NCBI RefSeq assembly: GCF_036226445.1
Contig: NZ_CP108474.1
Location: 3,224,001-3,288,000 of the forward strand
Reading direction: 5' to 3'
DNA from: Streptomyces sp. NBC_01255
Lineage (GTDB): Bacteria > Actinomycetota > Actinomycetes > Streptomycetales > Streptomycetaceae
DNA length: 64,000 nt
The position numbers and the translations under genes were made by a program. The notes under the pieces are model-generated. The model made no database searches. It saw only the letters and a list, made by a program, of their open reading frames with translations, and was not told the origin of the DNA. This document shows, piece by piece, positions 3,009 to 11,941 of this stretch (the first letter of the stretch is position 1; every line of letters starts with the position of its first letter).

Positions 3009-4163
3009 CTAGCCCAGGGCCTGGCGGAGGTCCGCCAGGAGGTCCTCGACGTTCTCGATGCCCACCGAGAGGCGGACGAGGTCGGCCGGGACCTCCAGGG
3101 CGGAGCCCGCGACGCTCGCGTGCGTCATGCGGCCCGGGTGCTCGATGAGGGACTCGACGCCGCCCAGCGACTCACCGAGGGTGAAGAGCTGCGCGCGGTT
3201 GCAGACCTCGACCGCCGCCTCCTCGCCGCCCTGCACGCGGAAGGAGATCATGCCGCCGAAGGACCGCATCTGCTTGGCCGCGACCTCGTGCCCCGGGTGC
3301 TCCGGGAGGCCCGGGTAGAGGACCTGGGTGACCTTCGGGTGCTGGGTCAGCATCTCGACGACCTTCGCCGCGTTCTCGCTGTGGCGGTCCATGCGCACGG
3401 CGAGGGTCTTGATGCCGCGCAGCACGATCCACGAGTCGAACGGTCCGGCGACCGCGCCCATCGCGTTCTGGTGGTACGCGAGCTCCTCGCCGAGCGCCTC
3501 GTCGGCCGTCACGAGCGCGCCGCCGACGACGTCCGAGTGGCCGCCCATGTACTTGGTGAGCGAGTGCACGACGACGTCCGCGCCGAGCGCCAGCGGCTGC
3601 TGGAGGTAGGGCGAGGCGAAGGTGTTGTCGACGACGAGCTTCACGCCGGCCTGGCGGGCGACGCCCGCGACGGCCTCGATGTCGGTGATGCCGAGGAGCG
3701 GGTTCGAGGGGGTCTCGACCCAGATCAGCTTCGTACGGTCGTTGACGGCGTCCCGCACCGAGTCGATGTCGGAGGTGTTCGCCACCGAGAAGTCCACGCC
3801 CCAGCGCTGCACGACCTTGGCGAAGAGCCGGAAGGTGCCGCCGTAGGCGTCGTTCGGGATGACCACGTGGTCGCCGGGCGCGAGGAGGGTGCGCAGCAGG
3901 CAGTCCTCGGCGGCGAGCCCGGAGGCGAAGGCGAGACCACGCCGGCCGCCCTCCAGGGCCGCCAGGTTCTCCTCCAGGGCGGTACGGGTCGGGTTCGCGC
4001 TGCGGCTGTACTCGTATCCGCCGCGCAGCCCGCCCACGCCGTCCTGCTTGTAGGTGGACACCTGGTAGATGGGCGGGACGACCGCGCCGGTCAGCGGGTC
4101 GGCGGTGTTGCCCGCGTGGATCGCGCGGGTCTCGAAGCTCTGGTGAGAGTGCTGGTCGCTCAT
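3009..4163 (-). CDS. metB: Cystathionine gamma-synthase
   Basis: A 384-aa PLP enzyme of the Cys/Met metabolism family, joining an O-activated homoserine and cysteine to cystathionine for methionine synthesis. Diagnostic segments are ETRAIHAGN at the N-terminus, the tetramer PLP-phosphate contacts YEYSRSANPTR, the substrate-loop region GDHVVIPNDAYGGTFRL, and the Schiff-base lysine in HSLTKYMGGHSD (near residue 200). The length is normal for the family. Cystathionine gamma-lyase is the main alternative; the motifs do not separate the two. It is divergent from the gene at 4236. Confidence 0.88.
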   Translation of the reverse strand: MSDQHSHQSFETRAIHAGNTADPLTGAVVPPIYQVSTYKQDGVGGLRGGYEYSRSANPTRTALEENLAALEGGRRGLAFASGLAAEDCLLRTLLAPGDHVVIPNDAYGGTFRLFAKVVQRWGVDFSVANTSDIDSVRDAVNDRTKLIWVETPSNPLLGITDIEAVAGVARQAGVKLVVDNTFASPYLQQPLALGADVVVHSLTKYMGGHSDVVGGALVTADEALGEELAYHQNAMGAVAGPFDSWIVLRGIKTLAVRMDRHSENAAKVVEMLTQHPKVTQVLYPGLPEHPGHEVAAKQMRSFGGMISFRVQGGEEAAVEVCNRAQLFTLGESLGGVESLIEHPGRMTHASVAGSALEVPADLVRLSVGIENVEDLLADLRQALG

Positions 4164-4235
4164 GAGTCAGGAGCGTAGTCCTGAGCGCCCCCCGCCGCTT
4201 CGTTCGTCTCACCGGGTGTCCTGGACAATGGACGC

Positions 4236-5345
4236 ATGGAGATTCTCTGGTTCCTGATCGCGCTGGTGCTGCTGGTCAGCATCCTCGGCCCCTACCTGCG
4301 CCGCCGCAGGGGCGGTGTCGGGATCCGACAGGTCGCGCCGGGCGCACCGGACGCGGCGGACCCGGAGGCGTACGGCTTCGTGCGGCAGGAGGAGCAGGAC
4401 GTACGGCTGCCGGGGGCCGACGAGGAGCTTCTCCACGTCCTCGACGTCGTCCAGGCCACCCAGGACTGGCGGGCCGCCTCGCGGCTGCTGGCCGAGACCG
4501 GCAAGGACGGCGAGGTGCGCTGGCAGCGCGTCCAGGCCTTCGCGGGCGCCGCCTCCCTCGAACTCCAGGAGCGGCCCGGTGTGGGCGGGGCGTGGCTGCG
4601 GGCCTGGCGGGCGGACGCGCCGAAGGACGCGGGCGGGGCGGCCGTGCACGGCGAGTTCCTGGTGCAGCAGGCGTGGCGCTCCTCGGCTGCCGGGACGGAC
4701 GACTTCCGGATCATCCTGGAGGAGGGGCTGAAGGTCACCGAGGAGGCGGCGCTGCTCGCGCCCGGCGACCCCGTCCCGTACATCACGCAGCTGGCCGTGG
4801 CGCGTGGGCTCGGCTACAGCCACGAGCAGTTCGACCAGGTGTGGGCGAAGGTCATCGACCGCGCTCCGCAGCACATGGGGGCGCATCTGGCGGCCCTGCA
4901 CTACTGGTGCGAGAAGTGGCACGGTTCGCGCGAGGAGGCCGACCACTTCGCGACGACGGCCGCCGCGCGCGCCCCGCGGGGCTCGCTGCTCGCGGCGCTG
5001 CCGCTGTTCGCGGTGTACGAGCACGTGCCCGACGTGGTGCTCGTACAGGACTTCTTCCGTACGGCCGTGGTGAGCAAGGCGACGGAGGGCGCGCTGTACG
5101 CGGTCCACTCGGCTCGGCCCGAGGACCCGATGCTCGCGCACGTCCGGCACCTGCTCGTCTGGTTCCTGGTGCGCGGCGAGCGCTGGGGCGAGGCCATGCA
5201 CCAGCTGGTGCACGTCGACGGGCACGTGGGCGCGGTGCCGTGGACGCTGAGCGGGGACCCGGCGGCGGAGTACACGGTCTTCCGGAACCTGGCGGTGGCG
5301 GGGTACGAGGCGAACGGCGGCAGCCCGGTGACGCTGCCGCGCTGA
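4236..5345 (+). CDS. Membrane-anchored conserved protein of unknown function
   Basis: A 369-aa protein. The first ~18 residues (MEILWFLIALVLLVSILG) form one uncleaved N-terminal transmembrane helix, followed by a basic YLRRRRGG stop-transfer, so the body should face the cytoplasm. The body is helical and rich in Trp/Ala, with TPR-like spacing (ALHYWCEKWHGSREEADHF; LLVWFLVRGERWGEAMHQLV), suggesting a helical-repeat scaffold. No catalytic motif is visible. I recall a similar gene between metB and msrA in other Streptomyces, which would make this core chromosome. The function is unknown. Confidence 0.75.
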   Translation: MEILWFLIALVLLVSILGPYLRRRRGGVGIRQVAPGAPDAADPEAYGFVRQEEQDVRLPGADEELLHVLDVVQATQDWRAASRLLAETGKDGEVRWQRVQAFAGAASLELQERPGVGGAWLRAWRADAPKDAGGAAVHGEFLVQQAWRSSAAGTDDFRIILEEGLKVTEEAALLAPGDPVPYITQLAVARGLGYSHEQFDQVWAKVIDRAPQHMGAHLAALHYWCEKWHGSREEADHFATTAAARAPRGSLLAALPLFAVYEHVPDVVLVQDFFRTAVVSKATEGALYAVHSARPEDPMLAHVRHLLVWFLVRGERWGEAMHQLVHVDGHVGAVPWTLSGDPAAEYTVFRNLAVAGYEANGGSPVTLPR

Positions 5346-5364
5346 GGCGGGGCTGGACCGCTGA

Positions 5365-5392
5365 GGGCCGGAGGGGAATCCCTTCCGGCCCT
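5365..5392 (+). terminator. Probable terminator hairpin before msrA
   Basis: GGGCCGGA and TCCGGCCC flank a short GGGG-AAT-CCC core, then a T-rich tail (TTCCTTGTTG) follows on the plus strand. It sits between the stop at 5345 and the msrA ribosome-binding site. Confidence 0.6.
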
Positions 5393-5433
5393 TCCTTGTT
5401 GTGTCGACTGCCGACGTCGAGGAGAGATGCAGC

Positions 5434-6099
5434 ATGTTCCTGTCCCGCACCCCCGTCCTCCCCACCCCCGAGCAGGCCCTGCGCGGCCGCCCGGAGCCGG
5501 AGTTCTCCGTCCCGGATCGCCACACGGTCCTCGGCAACCCGCTCCTCGGCCCCTACCCCGAGGGCCTGGAGGTCGCCGACTTCGCCCTGGGCTGTTTCTG
5601 GGGTGCCGAGCGCAAGTTCTGGCAGACCGAGGGCGTCTGGACGACCCTCGTCGGCTATCAGGGCGGCATCACGCCGAACCCGGTGTACGAGGAGGTGTGC
5701 TCCGGTCTGACCGGCCACACCGAGGTCGTCCGGGTCGTCTTCGACCCGTCGAAGGTCTCGTACGCGTCGCTCCTGAAGCTCTTCTGGGAGTCCCACGACC
5801 CGACGCAGGGCTTCCGTCAGGGCAACGACGTGGGCACCCAGTACCGCTCCGCCGTCTACACGCACAGCGCGGCCCAGGCCGAGCAGGCCGAGGCCTCCCG
5901 CGCGGCGTACCAGAAGGTCCTCGCGGGCTCCGGCTACGGCGAGATCACCACGCACGTCCTGCCGGCGGACGAGGAGCGCCCGTTCTATCCGGCGGAGGCG
6001 TACCACCAGCAGTACCTGGACCGCAATGTTGGCGGCTACTGCGGCATCGGCGGCACAGGCGTGGCATGTCCGATCGGCATCGCGCCCGCTGACGAGTGA
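5434..6099 (+). CDS. msrA: Peptide-methionine (S)-S-oxide reductase MsrA, with 3' end apparently supplied by an inserted element
   Basis: A 221-aa enzyme reducing methionine-S-sulfoxide in proteins. ATG 5434 is preferred over GTG 5401 because GGAGAGA sits just upstream of it. The catalytic motif [10 protein letters not shown] contains the nucleophilic Cys (near residue 53), and the family segments GYQGG and [12 protein letters not shown] are present. The C-terminal resolving-Cys region (GGYCGIGG...GVACPIG) is intact. From about 6022 the codons change to AAT, GTT, ACA, GCA and TGT, unlike the strongly GC-ending codons before. A second, decayed version of this C-terminus lies at 8701-8772. I infer that the last ~25 codons came with the element at 6018-8709. 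Confidence 0.92.
6013..6027 (+). other. Candidate attL (msrA-side junction)
   Basis: TACCTGGAC shares TACC and GGAC with TACCCGGAC at 8701-8709. Large serine recombinases need only a short identical core, so crossover within GGAC (6018-6021) is plausible. Codon use shifts exactly here. Confidence 0.5.
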
Positions 6100-6170
6100 C
6101 GATCGCTTGGTGCATGCGCGGGCAGACTCGTTCGCGGGGTTGGCCGTGGCCAGTGGTTGGGTAGGTTCGC

Positions 6171-6193
6171 GGGAGGCTCGCAGTGAGCCTCCC
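6171..6193 (+). terminator. Hairpin downstream of msrA inside the element
   Basis: GGGAGGCTC (6171-6179) pairs perfectly with GAGCCTCCC (6185-6193) across a 5-nt loop, 70 nt after the msrA stop and 18 nt before the unknown gene. It could end msrA transcription or form part of the attachment-site region. Confidence 0.5.
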
Positions 6194-6210
6194 GACGCTG
6201 TGGGACGTAC

Positions 6211-7095
6211 ATGCGCTTCAACAACATGATCTACTTTTCGCGACGCAGACTGAACGCGTTCTTCCCTGAGCGCGCCGCGCGCCGCATGCCGGTCTTGAGC
6301 GCGGAAGTGGATCTGCAGGTTGCAACGGTGGCGGTGTCACCCGCTCCACCCAGAAATCCGACCGAATCGGAGCTTCACCGGCTCCGCCAAGTACGGCGAC
6401 AGCTTGAGCGCGAATCCTCCTACTTCCATGCTCCAGGGTTGGCTGTGGGTGAGTGGATCGTCTTCGACCTTGAGATGGGATGGAGCACGTCACACGAAGA
6501 CAGCAAGCTGCCCGACTTTGACGACGTCGTGTTCTTCATCGGGTCCCTGCGAGGCGAGCGGACTCTGGATGGAACCCCCGTCGATTTGATGCTCTGCGGT
6601 TCCACGGAGCATCTCCTCAAGAAGACGGCAACGGCGGGCAGGATGGGGTCGGGTACCCAGTGGCTGCACGACTTGGTCCTCAAGATCAACGACGCGGATG
6701 GGAACGGACTCACAGGCATCCCGGAAATGCTGACGGCTGCGGCCTTGGCCGTGCCACGAGTCAACCGCCCCGATCAGGTGGCGCGATGGGTGTTCGACAT
6801 CGCCAAAGGCCACCATGCGCCGCAGCATCGGGCAAGAGTCCATGGGCTGGCCCGAGTGGACCTACACATTCCGGAGTCGGAGTTTCAACCGCGTCTCATT
6901 GTGGCCACCCCGCTGTACGTCCACGACGCCTCGAAGAAGCCGGCGCGATGGATGACACGTCTACGTCTTCACCGTGACCTGTATCGGCGCCATCGCCGGT
7001 CCATCTGGCAGTGGCGCCCCGATCTGCCACCACGTGACCGAGGCAGGCTCTACTGCCCACCCGGGCAGGCCGAAGCCGCTGAAGCCTCGGAGTGA
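6211..7095 (+). CDS. Unknown cargo protein of the msrA element
   Basis: A 294-aa protein starting MRFNNMIYFSRRRLNAFFPE. It has no signal peptide or membrane helix. The first third contains a long charged stretch (residues ~45-65, ESELHRLRQVRRQLERESS). A central region has an acidic patch (LPDFDDVVFFIGSLRGER) then LDGTPVDLMLCGSTEHLL. The C-terminus is strongly basic (LRLHRDLYRRHRRSIWQW). I recognise no catalytic motif; it vaguely recalls an uncharacterised actinobacterial family whose members begin with a similar I-Y-x-S-x-x-K/R-L-x-x-F segment. Base composition is lower in GC than the neighbours, consistent with transfer alongside the recombinase, to which it is convergent. Confidence 0.55.
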   Translation: MRFNNMIYFSRRRLNAFFPERAARRMPVLSAEVDLQVATVAVSPAPPRNPTESELHRLRQVRRQLERESSYFHAPGLAVGEWIVFDLEMGWSTSHEDSKLPDFDDVVFFIGSLRGERTLDGTPVDLMLCGSTEHLLKKTATAGRMGSGTQWLHDLVLKINDADGNGLTGIPEMLTAAALAVPRVNRPDQVARWVFDIAKGHHAPQHRARVHGLARVDLHIPESEFQPRLIVATPLYVHDASKKPARWMTRLRLHRDLYRRHRRSIWQWRPDLPPRDRGRLYCPPGQAEAAEASE

Positions 7096-7156
7096 GAGCT
7101 CGCCGCACCTTGTAGGACAGGGATCCCCTGGTGGCCTTGTACGTCTCAGCTTGCCT

Positions 7157-8641
7157 TCAGTCGCGCCACTGCGGGACCAGCAGGTCAGGGTTGAACGGGC
7201 GACGACCTCCGCCCCCCACCGGCCGCACGATCACCGTGTGCAGTACCTCCCGGACCAGCGTGCGCTTCTGCACCAGGTCCAGCCTGCCCGAAGCCCACCG
7301 CTCGCGTACGTCACCCGTGACCTCAACGGCCCGTTGCTCACTCAGAGCGTGACGCGTCCTGTCCGCACGGAGTTCCTTGACGCGCGCTTCCATCTTCTGG
7401 CTTTCAGGGAAGAACAGCTCGTCCGGCATCCGGTCTTCCTGCCATGCCTGGAGGAACGTGCGCTGCTTGGCCATCAGACGGTCCAGCTCCTCCTCCCCTC
7501 CCCACTTCTCGTGGGCGCGCGTCGCCCTGGCAGCCCTCTCCTCCAGCTTCGCGAGTACGGCTTCCGTGATGAACTCATCGATCTTGGCGCCGTTCCGTCC
7601 GGTACCGCCGCATCCGCCCATCTCCTTGCTGGGACACTGGTAGAGATACCCCCCAGAGAGGTCGGCTCGCGCGGTTGCCCTAAGGGGCGAGTTGCAGATC
7701 TGACCGTCAGCGCAAGGCTTTCCGCACCGGAGGATTCCCGTCAGCAGATACGACGGGGTGCGATAGTCCGTGACCGATCCGTCAGCCTTCACGTTGGGAC
7801 CGACGCGGGCCGAGAAGATGGCGTCGATGGCCATCCACTCCTTGGGCGTGATGACGGACTCCCAGAGACCCGTAACCGGAACGCCGTTGGCATCGCGAAC
7901 CAACTCACCGTTGTGCTTCCGCCAGCCGCACAGCCGAGGGTTCCACAGCGCGAGCTTGAGTGAGCGGCTCGCCCAATCCTTGCCGTTGATCGTGCGAACG
8001 CCGCGCTCCCGCCACTCGCGGAGGATGGAGTGCAGGGACCTGCCCGCGATCACCTCGCGGGCGGCCTTCGCCAACCACGCCGCTTCCTCGGGCTCCAGCG
8101 TGAGCTTGTCGACCTGCCAGCCGAACGGACGCTTGCCACCAGCCGGGATACCTGACTCCGCGCGAGCGCGGTGCGAGCGGCGCGCACGCCGCTGCATCTT
8201 GCGCACCTCCATCTTGGAGATGACGACGCCGAAGAGCCCCATGGACTCCACGTCCTCGCTATAGAGGTTCTTCGACCCCTTGGCGTCGGCGTAGAGCCGG
8301 CCTTCTTCGTACGTGATCGCGTCCACGAACCGTTCGTAGTCGCCCGCCAGGCGCGCAAGCCGGTCGTCCGCGACCACGATGACGCCCTGCACAGGCTGTC
8401 CGTCGGGCATGTGGCCCGACTTCAGCGCCTTGACCATGGCCTCGAAGTCCGGACGCACCACCGACGCCTTGGCCGCCGACAGGTCGTTGTCTGCGTAGCG
8501 GTGCACGATCGTCCAGCCGAGACGGGCCGCCGTCTCACCGTTCACCTTGTGTTGATCCTCGACGCCGTGACCGTCCTTGGCCGTGTCGACGGAGACACGC
8601 GCATACGAGACAACCGGGATGACCGATGCCGCTTCGCTCAC
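7157..8641 (-). CDS. Large serine recombinase (site-specific integrase)
   Basis: A 494-aa protein starting at GTG 8641 (VSEAASVIPVVSYARVSVD), which has GAGGGG about 8 nt upstream; the open frame extends further but would run into the pikR leader. The N-terminal resolvase domain (residues ~1-150) has the catalytic Ser in YARVS, the Arg-containing VVADDRLARLAGD motif and a long E-helix (SKMEVRKMQRRARRSHR). A recombinase domain follows (GKRPFGW...), then a zinc-ribbon with Cys pairs (LRCGKPC; YQCPSKEMGGCGG) and a C-terminal coiled-coil region (EELDRLMAKQRTFLQAW). The length fits phage/ICE integrases. It probably catalysed insertion of the 6018-8709 segment into msrA. Confidence 0.92.
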   Translation of the reverse strand: MSEAASVIPVVSYARVSVDTAKDGHGVEDQHKVNGETAARLGWTIVHRYADNDLSAAKASVVRPDFEAMVKALKSGHMPDGQPVQGVIVVADDRLARLAGDYERFVDAITYEEGRLYADAKGSKNLYSEDVESMGLFGVVISKMEVRKMQRRARRSHRARAESGIPAGGKRPFGWQVDKLTLEPEEAAWLAKAAREVIAGRSLHSILREWRERGVRTINGKDWASRSLKLALWNPRLCGWRKHNGELVRDANGVPVTGLWESVITPKEWMAIDAIFSARVGPNVKADGSVTDYRTPSYLLTGILRCGKPCADGQICNSPLRATARADLSGGYLYQCPSKEMGGCGGTGRNGAKIDEFITEAVLAKLEERAARATRAHEKWGGEEELDRLMAKQRTFLQAWQEDRMPDELFFPESQKMEARVKELRADRTRHALSEQRAVEVTGDVRERWASGRLDLVQKRTLVREVLHTVIVRPVGGGGRRPFNPDLLVPQWRD

Positions 8642-8700
8642 TTCCCACCCCTCACTAAGAGTTACTAATCGTACACGTAGGGAAATGCTGTGATCGGCAT

Positions 8701-8715
8701 TACCCGGACAAGAAC
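8701..8715 (+). other. Candidate attR (element/chromosome junction)
   Basis: TACCCGGAC followed by AAGAAC. Left of GGAC is element DNA just upstream of the recombinase; right of it, reading resumes as a decayed msrA tail. It matches the core at 6018-6021. Confidence 0.5.
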
Positions 8716-8772
8716 CCGACCGGCTGGCGCGGCATCGGAGTCTCCTGCCTGTTCGTTGTCGGGGACGCCGGG
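8701..8772 (+). pseudogene. Displaced, decayed 3' end of the native msrA
   Basis: In the frame starting at 8701 the plus strand reads Y-P-D-K-N-P-T-G-W-R-G-I-G-V-S-C and then L-F-V-V-G-D-A-G. It aligns with the intact C-terminus [22 protein letters not shown] of msrA at 6013. Small losses (the YC pair has become WR, and GTG is missing) and the absence of a stop at the expected place show that it is no longer used. It is unlikely to be chance given the residue order and the adjacent recombinase, but the match is short. Confidence 0.55.
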
Positions 8773-8815
8773 AAACGTCAACGGGGTCGGTTTCCGGCGG
8801 TGTTACTCTGGCGCC

Positions 8816-8866
8816 ATGCAGTTCTGCCACGCTCAGGCCCGTTACATGAGGCTGCGCCGCTCCTAG
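8816..8866 (+). CDS. 16-aa macrolide-sensing leader peptide of the inducible pikR gene
   Basis: A short ORF encoding MQFCHAQARYMRLRRS, ending at TAG 8864-8866, 157 nt before the methyltransferase start. It contains the Arg-Leu-Arg (+x+) macrolide/ketolide arrest motif in a Met-Arg-Leu-Arg context like the ErmD-type leader. Known family behaviour is that a drug-bound ribosome stalls at this motif and exposes the ribosome-binding site of the downstream erm gene. A 6-bp hairpin (CGCCGC/GCGGCG) overlaps its stop codon. The start codon has only a weak Shine-Dalgarno sequence. Confidence 0.8.
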   Translation: MQFCHAQARYMRLRRS

Positions 8867-9017
8867 CGGCGGGCCCCTCTTCACGCGTCTCACTCTCCGC
8901 GCGTCCTCGCATTCCTGCGTCGGTACTCGCGCTCTCGCGTTCGTTCAGGCCCTCCGCTTCCGGGTCCCGCCGGTGCGGCTCTTCGTGCTGCCCCGGCTCC
9001 GAACGGTTTCGCGGAGC
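8855..9017 (+). promoter_or_regulatory. Translational attenuator between leader and rRNA methyltransferase
   Basis: Hairpin 1 is CGCCGC (8855-8860) with GCGGCG (8866-8871), formed from the arrest codons themselves. Near the gene, GCTCCG (8996-9001) pairs with CGGAGC (9012-9017), burying the GGAG ribosome-binding site (9013-9016) of the ATG at 9024. CGCTCC within the leader (8858-8863) could compete for the same GGAGC, offering a switch. The pairing logic matches erm-type induction; the exact alternative folds need structure prediction. Confidence 0.6.
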
Positions 9018-9023
9018 AGACTC

Positions 9024-9995
9024 ATGCCATATTCCCCGCAGGGCGGCCGACACGAGCTCGGCCAGAACTTCCTCGTCGACCGGTCCGTGATCGACGAGAT
9101 CGACGGCCTGGTGGCCAGGACCAAGGGTCCGATACTGGAGATCGGTCCGGGTGACGGCGCCCTGACCCTCCCGCTGAGCAGGCACGGCAGGCCGATCACC
9201 GCCGTCGAGCTCGACGGCCGGCGGGCGCAGCGCCTCGGTGTCCGTACCCCCGGTCACGTGACCGTGGTGCACCACGACTTCCTGCACTACCCGCTGCCGC
9301 GCAACCCGCACGTGGTCGTCGGTAACGTCCCCTTCCACCTGACGACGGCGATCATGCGGCGGCTGCTCGACGCCCAGCACTGGCACACGGCCGTCCTCCT
9401 CGTCCAGTGGGAGGTCGCCCGGCGCAGGGCCGGCGTCGGCGGGTCGACCCTGCTGACGGCCGGCTGGGCGCCCTGGTACGAGTTCGATCTGCACTCCCGG
9501 GTCCCCGCGCGCGCCTTCCGCCCGATGCCGGGCGTGGACGGTGGGGTCCTGGTGATCCGGCGGCGGTCGGCGCCGCTCGTGGGCCAGGTGAAGACGTACC
9601 AGGACTTCGTACGCCAGGTGTTCACCGGCAGGGGGAACGGGCTGAAGGAGATCCTGCGGCGTACCGGGCGGATCTCGCAGCGGGATCTGGCGGCGTGGCT
9701 GCTGCGGAACGAGATCTCGCCGCACGCGCTGCCGAAAGACCTCAAGCCCGGGCAGTGGGCGTCGCTGTGGGAGCTGACCGGCGGTACGGCCGACGGTGCC
9801 CTCGCCGGTGCGGGGGGCGGCGCGGCCGGATCGCTCGGGTCGGCCAGGGCAGGGGCCGGTCACCCGGGCGGGCGGGCCTCCGCGAGCCGTCGGGGGGTGC
9901 CGCAGGCGCGGCGCGGCCGGGGGCGGGTCGTACGGAGCTCCACCGGGACCGAGCAGGGGCGGGGCAGGGGCCGGGGTCGACCGGAAAGCTCCTGA
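9024..9995 (+). CDS. pikR2: 23S rRNA (adenine-N6)-methyltransferase, inducible macrolide/ketolide self-resistance
   Basis: A 323-aa Erm-family enzyme methylating A2058 of 23S rRNA. Start ATG 9024 (MPYSPQGGRHELGQNF) follows GGAG. SAM motif I is LEIGPGDGALT (residues ~35-45), the catalytic N-[IL]-P-[FY] equivalent is VGNVPFHLT, and RHELGQNFLVD is the usual Erm N-terminus. The C-terminal ~60 residues are a Gly/Arg-rich tail, as in ErmE. The cluster is known to have two paralogues, a constitutive monomethylase (PikR1) and an inducible dimethylase (PikR2). I assign PikR2 here because only this gene has an arrest leader; the numbering of the two could be the reverse. Confidence 0.72.
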   Translation: MPYSPQGGRHELGQNFLVDRSVIDEIDGLVARTKGPILEIGPGDGALTLPLSRHGRPITAVELDGRRAQRLGVRTPGHVTVVHHDFLHYPLPRNPHVVVGNVPFHLTTAIMRRLLDAQHWHTAVLLVQWEVARRRAGVGGSTLLTAGWAPWYEFDLHSRVPARAFRPMPGVDGGVLVIRRRSAPLVGQVKTYQDFVRQVFTGRGNGLKEILRRTGRISQRDLAAWLLRNEISPHALPKDLKPGQWASLWELTGGTADGALAGAGGGAAGSLGSARAGAGHPGGRASASRRGVPQARRGRGRVVRSSTGTEQGRGRGRGRPESS

Positions 9996-10043
9996 CCTGT
10001 GCCTGATCCGTATCTCGTGCTCGTCTCGGCGGTCTCACCCGTT

Positions 10044-10072
10044 CCCCTCCCGCTCGCACATGGCGGGAGGGG
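10044..10072. terminator. Bidirectional terminator between the convergent pikR genes
   Basis: CCCCTCCCGC (10044-10053) and GCGGGAGGGG (10063-10072) form a perfect 10-bp stem with a 9-nt loop between the two stop codons. Confidence 0.65.
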
Positions 10073-10105
10073 AGTGGCGGGGCTGTGTGCGGGGCTGCGG
10101 GGCGG

Positions 10106-11146
10106 TTATCTGCCCGTGCGGCGTCCGTACGACGAGCCTCGCGCGCCCTGGCGTCCCTTCGTCTGGCGGACCTGTGCGCGGGGAGCGCAGGGGTCGCCGC
10201 CGCGCGTGGGGCCGAATCTGCGGCCCTCGGGCGTCGCGGGGGGTGTCCGGTCGGGCCTGGCAGACGTGGAACGGGTCCTGTTCGCCTCCGGCTCGTACTC
10301 CCTGCCGCCGCCGCCCTGGGCGGGCATGCGCGCGCCGGTCGCTCCCGGTGCGTACCCCGGCTGGGAGGCCTGGAAAAGGGCGATCCATTGGGTGAGGGTC
10401 AGGTCCTTCGGCAGTCCGCCGTCCGGAATTCCGTGGCGGTCGGCGAGGGACCGGTAGGTCCGTTTGGGGATGTGGCGCCGGAGGATCTCGGCGAGGCCGC
10501 GTCCGGGTCCGGTGAAGACGGCTTCGGCGAACTGCTGGAAGGCGCGGCTCGCGCTCTCCGGCAGCAGGGGCCGGGGGCGCCGTCTGATCGTCAGGATGCC
10601 GCCGTCGACGCTGGGCATCGGACGGAACGACGTGGCGCGGACGCGGTCGTGGAGCGTGAACTCGTACCAGGGGGCCCAGGAGGTCGTGAGCAGCGATCCG
10701 CCGCTGCGACCGGCGCGTTTACGGGCGACCTCCCACTGCACGATCAGGGCCGCCGACTGCCAGTTCGTCGATTCCAGGAGACGCCGGAGGATCTGGGTCG
10801 TGATACCGAAGGGGACGTTTCCGACGACGGTGTCGATCTCGCGCGGAAAACGGAAGTCGAGGAAATCTCCTTGGAATACGGTGACCTTTTCCCGGTCGAA
10901 CTTCCTCCGTATGTGCGCGGCCCAGTGCGGGTCCATCTCCACGGCCGTCACGGTGTCGAAGGAGTGGAGCAGCTCCTCGGTGATCGCGCCCTTTCCGGGG
11001 CCGATTTCGAGAACGTGTCTCCCGTCTCCCTCGACCTGCCGGACGAGATTGCGCACGGCTCTGTCGTCCTGGAGGAAGTTCTGCCCTAATTCGCGGCGGA
11101 GGACGTCGCGATCCGCTCGTCTCGGTATGGAGTCGCGCACTGCCAT
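10106..11146 (-). CDS. pikR1: 23S rRNA (adenine-N6)-methyltransferase, second self-resistance gene
   Basis: A 346-aa Erm-family protein starting at ATG 11146 with a GGAGGGG ribosome-binding site. Motifs are RRELGQNFLQDDRAV, SAM motif HVLEIGPGKGAIT, catalytic VGNVPFGIT, then VQWEVARKRAGRSGG, which aligns with the paralogue at 9024. The last ~80 residues are basic and Pro/Arg-rich. No RLR-type leader is visible upstream, fitting the constitutive member of the PikR1/PikR2 pair. Codon 20 is a TTA (plus-strand TAA at 11087-11089), which would make translation depend on the bldA leucyl-tRNA. It is divergent from pikAI across a 795-bp gap. Confidence 0.72.
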   Translation of the reverse strand: MAVRDSIPRRADRDVLRRELGQNFLQDDRAVRNLVRQVEGDGRHVLEIGPGKGAITEELLHSFDTVTAVEMDPHWAAHIRRKFDREKVTVFQGDFLDFRFPREIDTVVGNVPFGITTQILRRLLESTNWQSAALIVQWEVARKRAGRSGGSLLTTSWAPWYEFTLHDRVRATSFRPMPSVDGGILTIRRRPRPLLPESASRAFQQFAEAVFTGPGRGLAEILRRHIPKRTYRSLADRHGIPDGGLPKDLTLTQWIALFQASQPGYAPGATGARMPAQGGGGREYEPEANRTRSTSARPDRTPPATPEGRRFGPTRGGDPCAPRAQVRQTKGRQGARGSSYGRRTGR

Positions 11147-11941
11147 GAACGATCCCCTCCCTGGCTGCCGTGGTCAATGGACTTGGCACGGACCATACCT
11201 CACGGTCCGTCGCCTGACAGGAGAGCGAGTTGACGTAGTGACGGCTTTCCGTACGGGAGTTGGGAGCGGGCCGAGAGGGCGGGGTGAGGGGTGAGCGGAA
11301 GAGGGCGGGAGGGCCGGCTCAGGGTCGCCTTCCCCCAAGTGAGGTGCGGCGGAGTGGTATTGGAGGGGCCGGGAGGCTTGCTGCGCGAAGACCCTCCAAC
11401 GCGCCTCCGGTGGGGTCGGGTTGAGGTCGCTGCTCGTCGGCCACTCCCGCCGTCGGGGCCGAACTATGTCATGTCGGGGATGAAATCAAGCCATTCCCCC
11501 GGGAACGGCTGTTACCCCTCCCTTTACCTGGCGTGGATTTCCCCACCATTGGTATAGAGCGTGAGTCGACACGACACCATGGGGACCGCGCATGCGGCGG
11601 ACACCACCCCCCGGCGCCCCGACAAGGGGGGTCCGCGACCCTGCCGGACTCCCGTGGCCTGGGGTCTACGCCAGGTATAGGGGGAACGTAGGGGGAGCAT
11701 AGGGGGGGTGCCCTGAGGTTGGGTGAAAGCGCGGCTTCCGGAAACGGAGCCGGATGTCTTCAGCCGGAATTACCAGGACCGGCGCGAGAACACCGGTGAC
11801 AGGGCCCTGGGGCGGCAGCGTGGGACATGGGGGGAGTGCGGGTCCGACGGGGGTTGCCCCCTGCCGGCTCTGATCATGCGGAGCACTCCTTCTCTCCTGC
11901 TTCCCACCGGTGATGTGCGCGCCGAATTGATTCGTGGAGAG
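11147..11941. promoter_or_regulatory. Intergenic control region between pikR1 and pikAI
   Basis: About 795 bp without a convincing gene. It must hold the promoters of pikR1 (leftward) and of the PKS operon (rightward). Visible elements are a possible -10 TATAGA at 11552-11557, three TAGGGGG heptamers spaced 11 bp apart (11678-11706), and a GGGGG/CCCCC short inverted repeat near 11849-11861. A frame running into pikAI from 11723 exists but lacks PKS-like sequence before residue 74. Confidence 0.6.
11678..11706 (+). promoter_or_regulatory. Three TAGGGGG direct repeats with exact 11-bp spacing upstream of pikAI
   Basis: TAGGGGG starts at 11678, 11689 and 11700, so the copies face the same side of the helix. 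This geometry is typical of activator operators, such as the heptamer repeats of SARP regulators. A related set lies at 55455-55482 before desIII. PikD or another pathway regulator is a candidate binder. Confidence 0.55.

What the first reader, a model, noticed from the sequence alone, without database searches (positions are those of the whole stretch)
6018..8709. Minimal 2.7-kb serine-recombinase element that targets and rebuilds the 3' end of msrA
The sequence shows a large serine recombinase and one unknown gene bounded by TACCTGGAC in msrA and TACCCGGAC at 8701. Beyond the second junction a decayed msrA tail reads in the right frame (D-K-N-P-T-G...G-I-G-V-S-C). The msrA gene now ends with codons of foreign character that still encode the resolving-cysteine region. 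I infer insertion into msrA with replacement of its last ~25 codons by element-encoded ones, which is unusual for serine integrases, since they often disrupt protein-coding targets. The insertion lies at the edge of the pik cluster, so it may have influenced its mobility or arrival.
Basis: partly seen in the sequence, partly recalled or inferred. Interest (0 to 1): 0.78.

Follow-up and report, generated by a model that had tools for sequence, protein, structure and literature searches.

The report
Mobile element rebuilding a repair gene
A small piece of mobile DNA has inserted itself into the end of a bacterial protein-repair gene (msrA) and supplied a replacement ending so that the gene can still be read in full; its relatives, several of them with conjugation genes, do the same in other actinobacteria.

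Summary
Confirmed and extended. A 2,688-bp element (6009-8696: DUF7019 gene plus large serine recombinase, LSR) sits in the 3' end of msrA and supplies its last ~28 codons, including both C-terminal cysteines; a decayed displaced host tail lies beyond (8703-8772). Three relatives with the same pik cluster have uninterrupted msrA joined to the far flank; identity is 93-95% up to the crossover, then 73%. So the element came after pik and did not bring it. Twenty-five non-redundant family recombinases have an msrA tail beside them; 21 have both ends known (19 measured, 2.2-17 kb), and several carry AICE transfer/replication genes. A second, unrelated LSR family inserts ~45 nt further 3'. The window copy is probably a reduced, decaying derivative. 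LSR-driven AICEs and gene-preserving islands are known; an LSR recoding the end of msrA was not found in three literature searches. New variant of a known kind.

The parts
5434..6099 (+). msrA, chimeric: host codons up to the crossover, element-encoded codons after it; stop TGA at 6097-6099
   Evidence: Pfam PMSR E 2e-58; closest solved structures are MsrA; identity to three pik-bearing relatives falls from 93-95% (450 nt upstream) to 73% (first 60 nt after the crossover)
6009..6014 (+). attL crossover core GCAGTA
   Evidence: attL = attR in 21 of 21 elements at five of the six positions, 17 of 21 at the fourth
6015..6099 (+). element-encoded msrA 3' end ([28 protein letters not shown]), presumably also the right half of attP
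   Evidence: 78-87% nt identity over 60 nt to the same stretch in seven related elements, 73% to host tails of pik-bearing relatives
6009..8696 (.). whole integrated element, 2,688 bp
   Evidence: attL/attR cores; empty site in G292, G329, G346
6211..7095 (+). cargo gene, DUF7019 (PF22880), 294 aa, function unknown
   Evidence: Pfam E 8e-12; 80% aa orthologue in the element of S. anulatus NRRL B-2873; the two closest homologues among 392 genomes (G018 78%, G261 64%; the rest at most 41%) lie 1.0 kb from msrA and about 4 kb from an msrA relic
7157..8641 (-). large serine recombinase (integrase), 494 aa, open frame; S17, R15, R94, R97 present
   Evidence: Pfam, PHROG 95 integrase, invariant residues in A1
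8642..8696 (.). element end next to the recombinase start (presumed left half of attP)
   Evidence: compared by eye with other members; low but alignable identity to S. anulatus
8697..8702 (+). attR crossover core, here GCATTA
   Evidence: the same variant in L147
8703..8772 (+). displaced, decayed host msrA tail (9-nt deletion, YC to WR, stop lost with a further deletion)
   Evidence: alignment with five uninterrupted msrA genes; tblastn E 0.007

Best explanation
The element belongs to a family of integrative elements of actinobacteria whose large serine recombinase recombines an attP with an attB inside the 3' part of msrA (crossover at codon 193 here). The attP carries, in frame, an alternative 3' end of msrA, so integration exchanges the host tail for an element-encoded tail (about 28 codons with both C-terminal cysteines, which by recalled MsrA biochemistry are the recycling cysteines) and the reading frame is kept; the host tail is pushed to the far side and decays. 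Because attP must differ from attB for directionality (established for serine integrases), the element uses a recoded, more AT-rich solution for this stretch that should still work as protein. Larger members carry a GntR regulator, an FtsK-type transfer protein and RepSA and are presumably conjugative (AICE); the window copy has only DUF7019 plus the recombinase and is probably a reduced derivative that entered after the pik cluster already stood beside msrA. Shown by sequence: insertion, empty site, tail exchange, shared target, decay of displaced tails, transfer between species. Inferred: enzymatic activity, excision, function of the chimeric MsrA, conjugation, loss of autonomy of this copy.
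For: (1) Empty sites: G292, G329, G346 (pik beside msrA, 3 of 3 examined) and G015, G004 (no pik match) have msrA read through the crossover. (2) Identity break at the crossover, 93-95% to 73%, while the tail is 78-87% identical to tails of seven other elements. (3) Target: 14 of 14 recombinases at 57-100% identity (window included) have an msrA tail at their 5' side, 0 of 12 at 35-46% do; 19 of 48 named loci do. (4) 21 elements with both ends: attached tail open with both cysteines in 21 of 21; displaced tail with indel, frameshift or loss in 7 of 21, classed by eye (one-sided Fisher p = 0.004). (5) Recoding: AT fraction at +12..+30 is 0.47 attached, 0.37 displaced, 0.38 in 25 uninterrupted genes (p = 0.001 and 0.0002). 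(6) Transfer: recombinase region 96.4% against msrA body 80.7% nt between G281 and S. anulatus. (7) RepSA and FtsK genes in relatives. (8) 21 Streptomycetaceae recombinases with this target form one supported clade (96/99).
Against: No activity, circle or free attP was seen: no relative found in viral contigs, about 30% at best in phages, and in plasmid records only one long hit above 50% (53%, in a chromosome-sized record). In 3 of 21 elements (G289, L170, L179) much of the attached tail equals the displaced one, which needs gene conversion or a host-adapted element. The fourth core base differs between the ends in 4 of 21 (window, L147, G098, L146). No directionality factor was identified. 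On the tree the msrA target needs two changes, not one. Recombinases at about 50-55% identity lie beside other genes, often inside them, and apart from one lead (L188) I could show no rebuilding there, so gene preservation is not shown for the wider group. Outside the recombinase, the window and S. anulatus elements are about as similar as their hosts.
Confidence: 0.93

Rival explanations
1. An active minimal mobile unit: two genes plus att sites are sufficient, moved by its own recombinase and carried between cells by chromosome conjugation, transduction or helper AICEs, rather than a decaying leftover of an AICE.
For: Six of 19 measured elements are under 3 kb with open recombinase frames (window, G098, G158, G333, L143, L146); the same DUF7019 + LSR pair occurs in S. 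anulatus NRRL B-2873 with GCAGTA at both ends.
Against: The window copy has a decayed attR side and a core mismatch; full AICE modules exist in relatives, and loss is easier than gain; no circle seen.
Confidence: 0.3
2. The second msrA tail is a tandem or segmental duplication of the msrA end, and the recombinase gene is incidental.
For: Both tails are msrA 3' ends in direct orientation.
Against: Empty sites, the abrupt identity break, and the same crossover in 21 elements, of which 19 measure 2.2-17 kb with differing cargo.
Confidence: 0.02
3. Remnant of a temperate phage.
For: LSR of PHROG 95; phage integrases are the best-known relatives.
Against: Best phage match about 30% identity; no relative in viral contigs; among 20 cargo proteins scanned from relatives (chosen from a crude ORF call) no virion family passed its cut-off, while RepSA or FtsK did in several.
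Confidence: 0.04
4. The element carried or helped to install the pik cluster.
For: It lies at the pik edge; the msrA-ADH interval is 62 kb here against 0.5 kb (G004) and 2.6 kb (G015).
Against: G292, G329 and G346 have pik directly beside an uninterrupted msrA; pik is outside attL/attR, and no further msrA tail was found at its far end (no third hit below E 1).
Confidence: 0.02

Closest known systems
AICEs (pSAM2-type actinomycete integrative and conjugative elements), serine-recombinase subset
   Same: Relatives at the same site carry RepSA and FtsK-type transfer genes; AICEs with serine recombinases, some in protein-coding genes, were reported (19 of 144; PMC3218068, section 6 and passages read)
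   Different: The window copy lacks rep and tra; msrA as target and replacement of its coding end do not appear in the parts I read (tables and supplements not seen)
SCCmec / ECC elements (CcrA/CcrB large serine recombinases at the 3' region of rlmH)
   Same: LSRs, 3' end of a conserved protein-coding gene, variable cargo (PMC6222049, abstract and passages read)
   Different: Two recombinases there, one here; different gene; I did not compare how many codons are exchanged there
Genomic islands and prophages that reconstitute their target gene
   Same: Reconstitution is said to occur in many islands (PMC12884075, introduction passage); an M. abscessus prophage replaces the last 7 residues of MAB_2979 with 8 (PMC8092301, passages)
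   Different: In the latter paper the three serine-integrase sites all disrupt their genes; here an LSR element keeps the frame and about 28 codons with two cysteines are exchanged
phiC31, phiBT1, SV1 and other phage serine integrases
   Same: Domain layout and short shared core (SV1: 4 bp; PMC4068962, passages)
   Different: About 30% identity at best among phage records; different attB

Membership tests
Large serine recombinase (serine integrase) | Resolvase domain + Recombinase domain + zinc ribbon, catalytic serine and arginines | tested here: met
Large serine recombinase (serine integrase) | attL/attR sharing a short core, empty attB in relatives | tested here: met
   6-bp core (fourth base variable), longer shared stretch in some (21 bp in G025)
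Large serine recombinase (serine integrase) | Catalyses attP x attB integration | not testable with these tools
   needs an assay
AICE | Replication protein (RepSA, RepAM or Prim-Pol) | tested here: not met
   Window element holds only DUF7019 and the LSR; RepSA met in relatives
AICE | FtsK/SpoIIIE-type transfer protein | tested here: not met
   absent from the window element; met in relatives
AICE | Site-specific integrase and att sites | tested here: met
SCC-like cassette chromosome | ccr recombinases inserting at the 3' region of rlmH | tested here: not met
   Target is msrA, single recombinase
Prophage | Virion structural or lysis genes | tested here: not met
   the 2.7-kb element has no further gene

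The most novel reading that the evidence does not exclude
The 3' end of msrA in Streptomyces and related actinobacteria is a docking site used independently by at least two unrelated serine-recombinase families (crossovers about 45 nt apart), each of which overwrites the C-terminal redox tail of MsrA in frame; layers of insertion, gene conversion and loss have written part of the natural diversity of MsrA C-termini (for example the long ...P...NWG..CPTG tails found where no such recombinase was detected), so that a conserved enzyme's tail is repeatedly supplied by mobile elements.
Probability: 0.4. Interest if true: 0.75.

Novelty: new variant of a known kind. Interest (0 to 1): 0.6.

Why it matters
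It shows serine integrases solving the problem that tyrosine integrases solve with tRNA genes: using a conserved gene as a landing site without destroying it, although attP must differ from attB and must also encode working protein. It gives 21 natural att pairs and a candidate host-neutral landing site (msrA) for Streptomyces genetics, a direct test of how far an attP half-site and a protein-coding constraint can be reconciled, and a case in which mobile elements rewrite the tail of a housekeeping repair enzyme.

Tried and rejected
Rejected: pik as cargo; tandem duplication; phage remnant. I first took GCATTA at attR as a late mutation that would block excision; the same variant in L147 makes an attP-borne difference equally likely, so I do not claim immobility from it. 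Tail rebuilding in aldo/keto-reductase-targeting relatives: a similar gene lies inside three Herbidospora elements, but it is a paralogue of about 49% identity over 34-37 residues and proves nothing. One Parafrankia relative (L188) does show a second, 80% identical gene end about 10 kb away; not followed. The tblastx screen gave many hits of 30-60% identity in high-GC DNA which I treated as chance and dropped. The random-window control (38 of 2000 windows hit) contained true tails and is not used. DUF7019: no PADLOC match. From the tree L185 was dropped for an internal stop, and L186-L189 were not entered.
Full report
WHAT IS THERE. The window holds msrA (5434-6099), a 294-aa DUF7019 gene (6211-7095), and on the minus strand a 494-aa large serine recombinase (7157-8641) with Resolvase, Recombinase and zinc-ribbon domains above Pfam cut-offs. 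Right of the recombinase start, at 8697-8772, is a degraded copy of an msrA 3' end in the same direction as msrA.

THE EMPTY SITE. A search of 392 genomes of the genus with that methyltransferase gave three others at 93-97% identity (G329, G292, G346). In all three msrA lies directly beside it, with no recombinase between, and reads [25 protein letters not shown]...stop. Window 4000-6083 aligns to them at 92-94%, window 8697-8772 (8697-8761 in G292) to their msrA tail at 69-74%, and the DNA from about 8.76 kb on to their flank at 83-86%. Two further relatives, G015 and G004, without a match, also have an intact msrA, and collinearity with the window genome resumes near window coordinate 68.0 kb at an alcohol-dehydrogenase-like gene (gene named by eye). 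Thus the pik region stood beside msrA first; the element entered later, in the lineage of this genome. The displaced tail has since lost 9 nt, the Tyr-Cys pair, its stop codon and the inverted repeat that follows msrA in the relatives (the repeat is read by eye).

TAIL EXCHANGE. In the 450 nt before the crossover the window is 93-95% identical to the three pik-bearing relatives; in the first 60 nt after it, 73%. The same 60 nt are 78-87% identical to the attached tails of seven other elements. The crossover falls at codon 193; residues differ from the host type from R197 on. Both cysteines of the tail ([12 protein letters not shown]) are kept; the best-matching solved MsrA proteins have the corresponding GYCGLGGTGVSCP. 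That these are the recycling cysteines is recalled, not tested.

A FAMILY WITH ONE TARGET. Among 392 genomes there are 26 places at E <= 1e-80. All 14 recombinases at 57-100% identity (window included) have an msrA tail at their 5' side; none of the 12 at 35-46% does. A scan of the named genome collection gave 48 loci; 19 have such a tail within 400 nt at E <= 0.01, 15 of them in Streptomycetaceae and one each in Dactylosporangium, Actinoplanes, Actinomadura rubrisoli and a Pseudonocardiales MAG. Two of the 48 could not be judged (L161 has 45 nt on that side, L189 is a fragment). In a tree of 52 recombinases the 21 Streptomycetaceae ones with this target form one clade (96/99); the Micromonosporaceae pair and the Actinomadura one lie elsewhere, so the label needs two changes. 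Other relatives lie beside other genes: ten an aldo/keto reductase and three an ExoIII-like gene (genes named by eye).

BOTH ENDS. For 21 elements I had both ends; 19 lie in one locus and measure 2,248 to 16,909 bp, six of them under 3 kb: window, G098, G158, G333, S. anulatus NRRL B-2873 (L143) and Actinacidiphila oryziradicis (L146). G193 is split over two contigs and G180 over two fetched stretches. attL and attR agree in 21 of 21 at positions 1, 2, 3, 5 and 6 of GCANTA and in 17 of 21 at position 4; agreement falls off, unevenly, to both sides. The attached tail is open with both cysteines in 21 of 21. By eye, the displaced tail has lost frame, stop or a cysteine in five (window, G098, G309, G408, L147) and has in-frame deletions in two more (L143, G281); 7 of 21 against 0 of 21 gives p = 0.004, and 5 of 21 gives p = 0.024. 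Between +12 and +30 the attached tails are more AT-rich (0.47) than displaced tails (0.37) or 25 uninterrupted genes (0.38); further on they are equal. This is what one expects if that stretch is an attP half-site that must also be coding. Against a simple reading, three attached tails (G289, L170, L179) equal the displaced one over much of their length, which I take as gene conversion; and the ends differ at core position 4 in window, L147, G098 and L146.

WHAT THE ELEMENTS ARE. Relatives at the same site carry a GntR regulator (KorSA-like, name recalled), an FtsK/SpoIIIE transfer protein and RepSA: G180, G192, G061, G289, L149 and L150 by local search (the attL end of L149 and L150 was not seen), with Pfam support for FtsK and RepSA in G289, G192 and G061; L148, L170 and L179 have RepSA. 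RepSA and FtsK/SpoIIIE are among the AICE markers of PMC3218068. Others hold a DUF3885 gene or its remains next to msrA, which in G025 lies outside the element as the neighbour of the displaced tail, so elements have picked up or exchanged host DNA at this end. The window copy has none of the transfer genes. Its closest counterpart in content is the 2,767-bp element of S. anulatus NRRL B-2873 (DUF7019 80% aa; recombinase 89% aa). Transfer between species is clear for G281 and S. anulatus: recombinase region 96.4% nt, msrA body 80.7%; over all 171 pairs the recombinase is the more similar of the two in 36. I conclude that the window holds a reduced AICE-type element; that it has lost mobility is likely but not shown.

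A SECOND FAMILY. G018 has a DUF7019 gene (78%) 1.0 kb from msrA and a recombinase only 28% identical to the window's, and directly beside that recombinase the fragment GTGVSCPIGIAEA. A search with this second recombinase gave 28 places in 25 of 392 genomes at E <= 1e-50. Of the nine at 75-100% identity, eight (G018, G282, G079, G380, G325, G321, G069, G129) have an msrA tail fragment beside them and msrA 6.7-21 kb away in the matching orientation; the ninth (G394) has a stop inside, no tail beside it, and an msrA tail relic about 24 kb away. Of the 19 places at 42-60% I looked at ten; none has such a tail. The tail fragment begins about 45 nt further 3' than the first crossover. Seven of the eight attached tails have an insertion of the type V-K/N-L-x-x-P before the last cysteine; in one of these (G325) there is a stop codon inside it; G129 has a native-looking tail. 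Five of the eight carry the GntR regulator, FtsK and RepSA. Long tails of this kind also occur in five msrA genes of the comparison set (V-K-L in G022 and G011; a related A-T-L-E-S-P form in G002, G029 and G021). G002 and G011 are listed without this recombinase; the other three are not among its 25 hits, but I did not confirm that they were in that sample. The displaced tails of four elements of the first family (G309, G408, L146, L150) are of the V-K-L type too, so the two families may have layered on each other. Whether those tails are scars or an old allele that was captured, I cannot tell.

COMPARED WITH WHAT IS KNOWN. Serine-recombinase AICEs, some inside protein genes, are known (PMC3218068, section 6 and passages). 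Islands often reconstitute the gene they enter (PMC12884075, passage); SCCmec and ECC use CcrAB at the 3' region of rlmH (PMC6222049, abstract and passages). In one M. abscessus survey the three serine-integrase sites all disrupt their genes, while another prophage exchanges 7 residues for 8 (PMC8092301, passages). A large LSR survey treats targets as genes disrupted by insertion (PMC10083194, passages). Two searches for serine integrase or integrase with methionine sulfoxide reductase and attB found no paper; a third, on large serine recombinase, attB and msrA, found 99 papers with at least two of the terms, of which 15 were listed, and the only listed one with all three is an MRSA review that I did not open. 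Subscription papers and supplements were not searched. Hence a new variant of a known kind: LSR, protein-coding target, long functional tail exchanged, and two unrelated recombinase families converging on the same gene end.

Noticed in passing
L200-L206, L208 and L048, L228-L233, L235 (G018, G282, G079, G380, G325, G321, G069, G129): A second, unrelated serine-recombinase family also inserts in the msrA 3' end, about 45 nt further on; seven of eight attached tails are a longer variant, and five of eight elements carry AICE genes.
   Followed up: partly
L187:1-13117 (Pseudonocardiales MAG): Two msrA tails with the same element-type left arm lie 1.16 kb apart beside the recombinase, as if two elements had accreted at the site.
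   Followed up: no
L052 (G024) and L053 (G032): No msrA body of this type was found; only a tail of element type (LDRNING) remains, beside the DUF3885 neighbour.
   Followed up: partly
window 6.0-68 kb; L124, L125: The interval between msrA and an alcohol-dehydrogenase-like gene is 0.5 kb (G004), 2.6 kb (G015) or 62 kb here; the whole pik region and a glycosidase-like gene (named by eye) sit in it in this genome.
   Followed up: partly
L127, L134, L144, L146, L131, L129: A DUF3885 gene, intact or decayed, lies inside several elements directly after the msrA stop, although in G025 it lies downstream of the displaced tail.
   Followed up: partly
L070-L076, L078, L079: Nine of the 12 recombinases at 35-46% identity lie next to the start of a gene beginning M(K/N)ISQDIRR, suggesting another fixed target.
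   Followed up: no
L131 (G309) 6149-11395: Cargo with an NB-ARC/TPR protein and a radical SAM protein that matches PADLOC viperin models (E 2e-11), possibly defence.
   Followed up: no
L188 (Parafrankia sp. EUN1f): A relative of the recombinase lies beside a different gene whose end occurs twice, 80% identical and about 10 kb apart, so gene rebuilding may extend to other targets.
   Followed up: no
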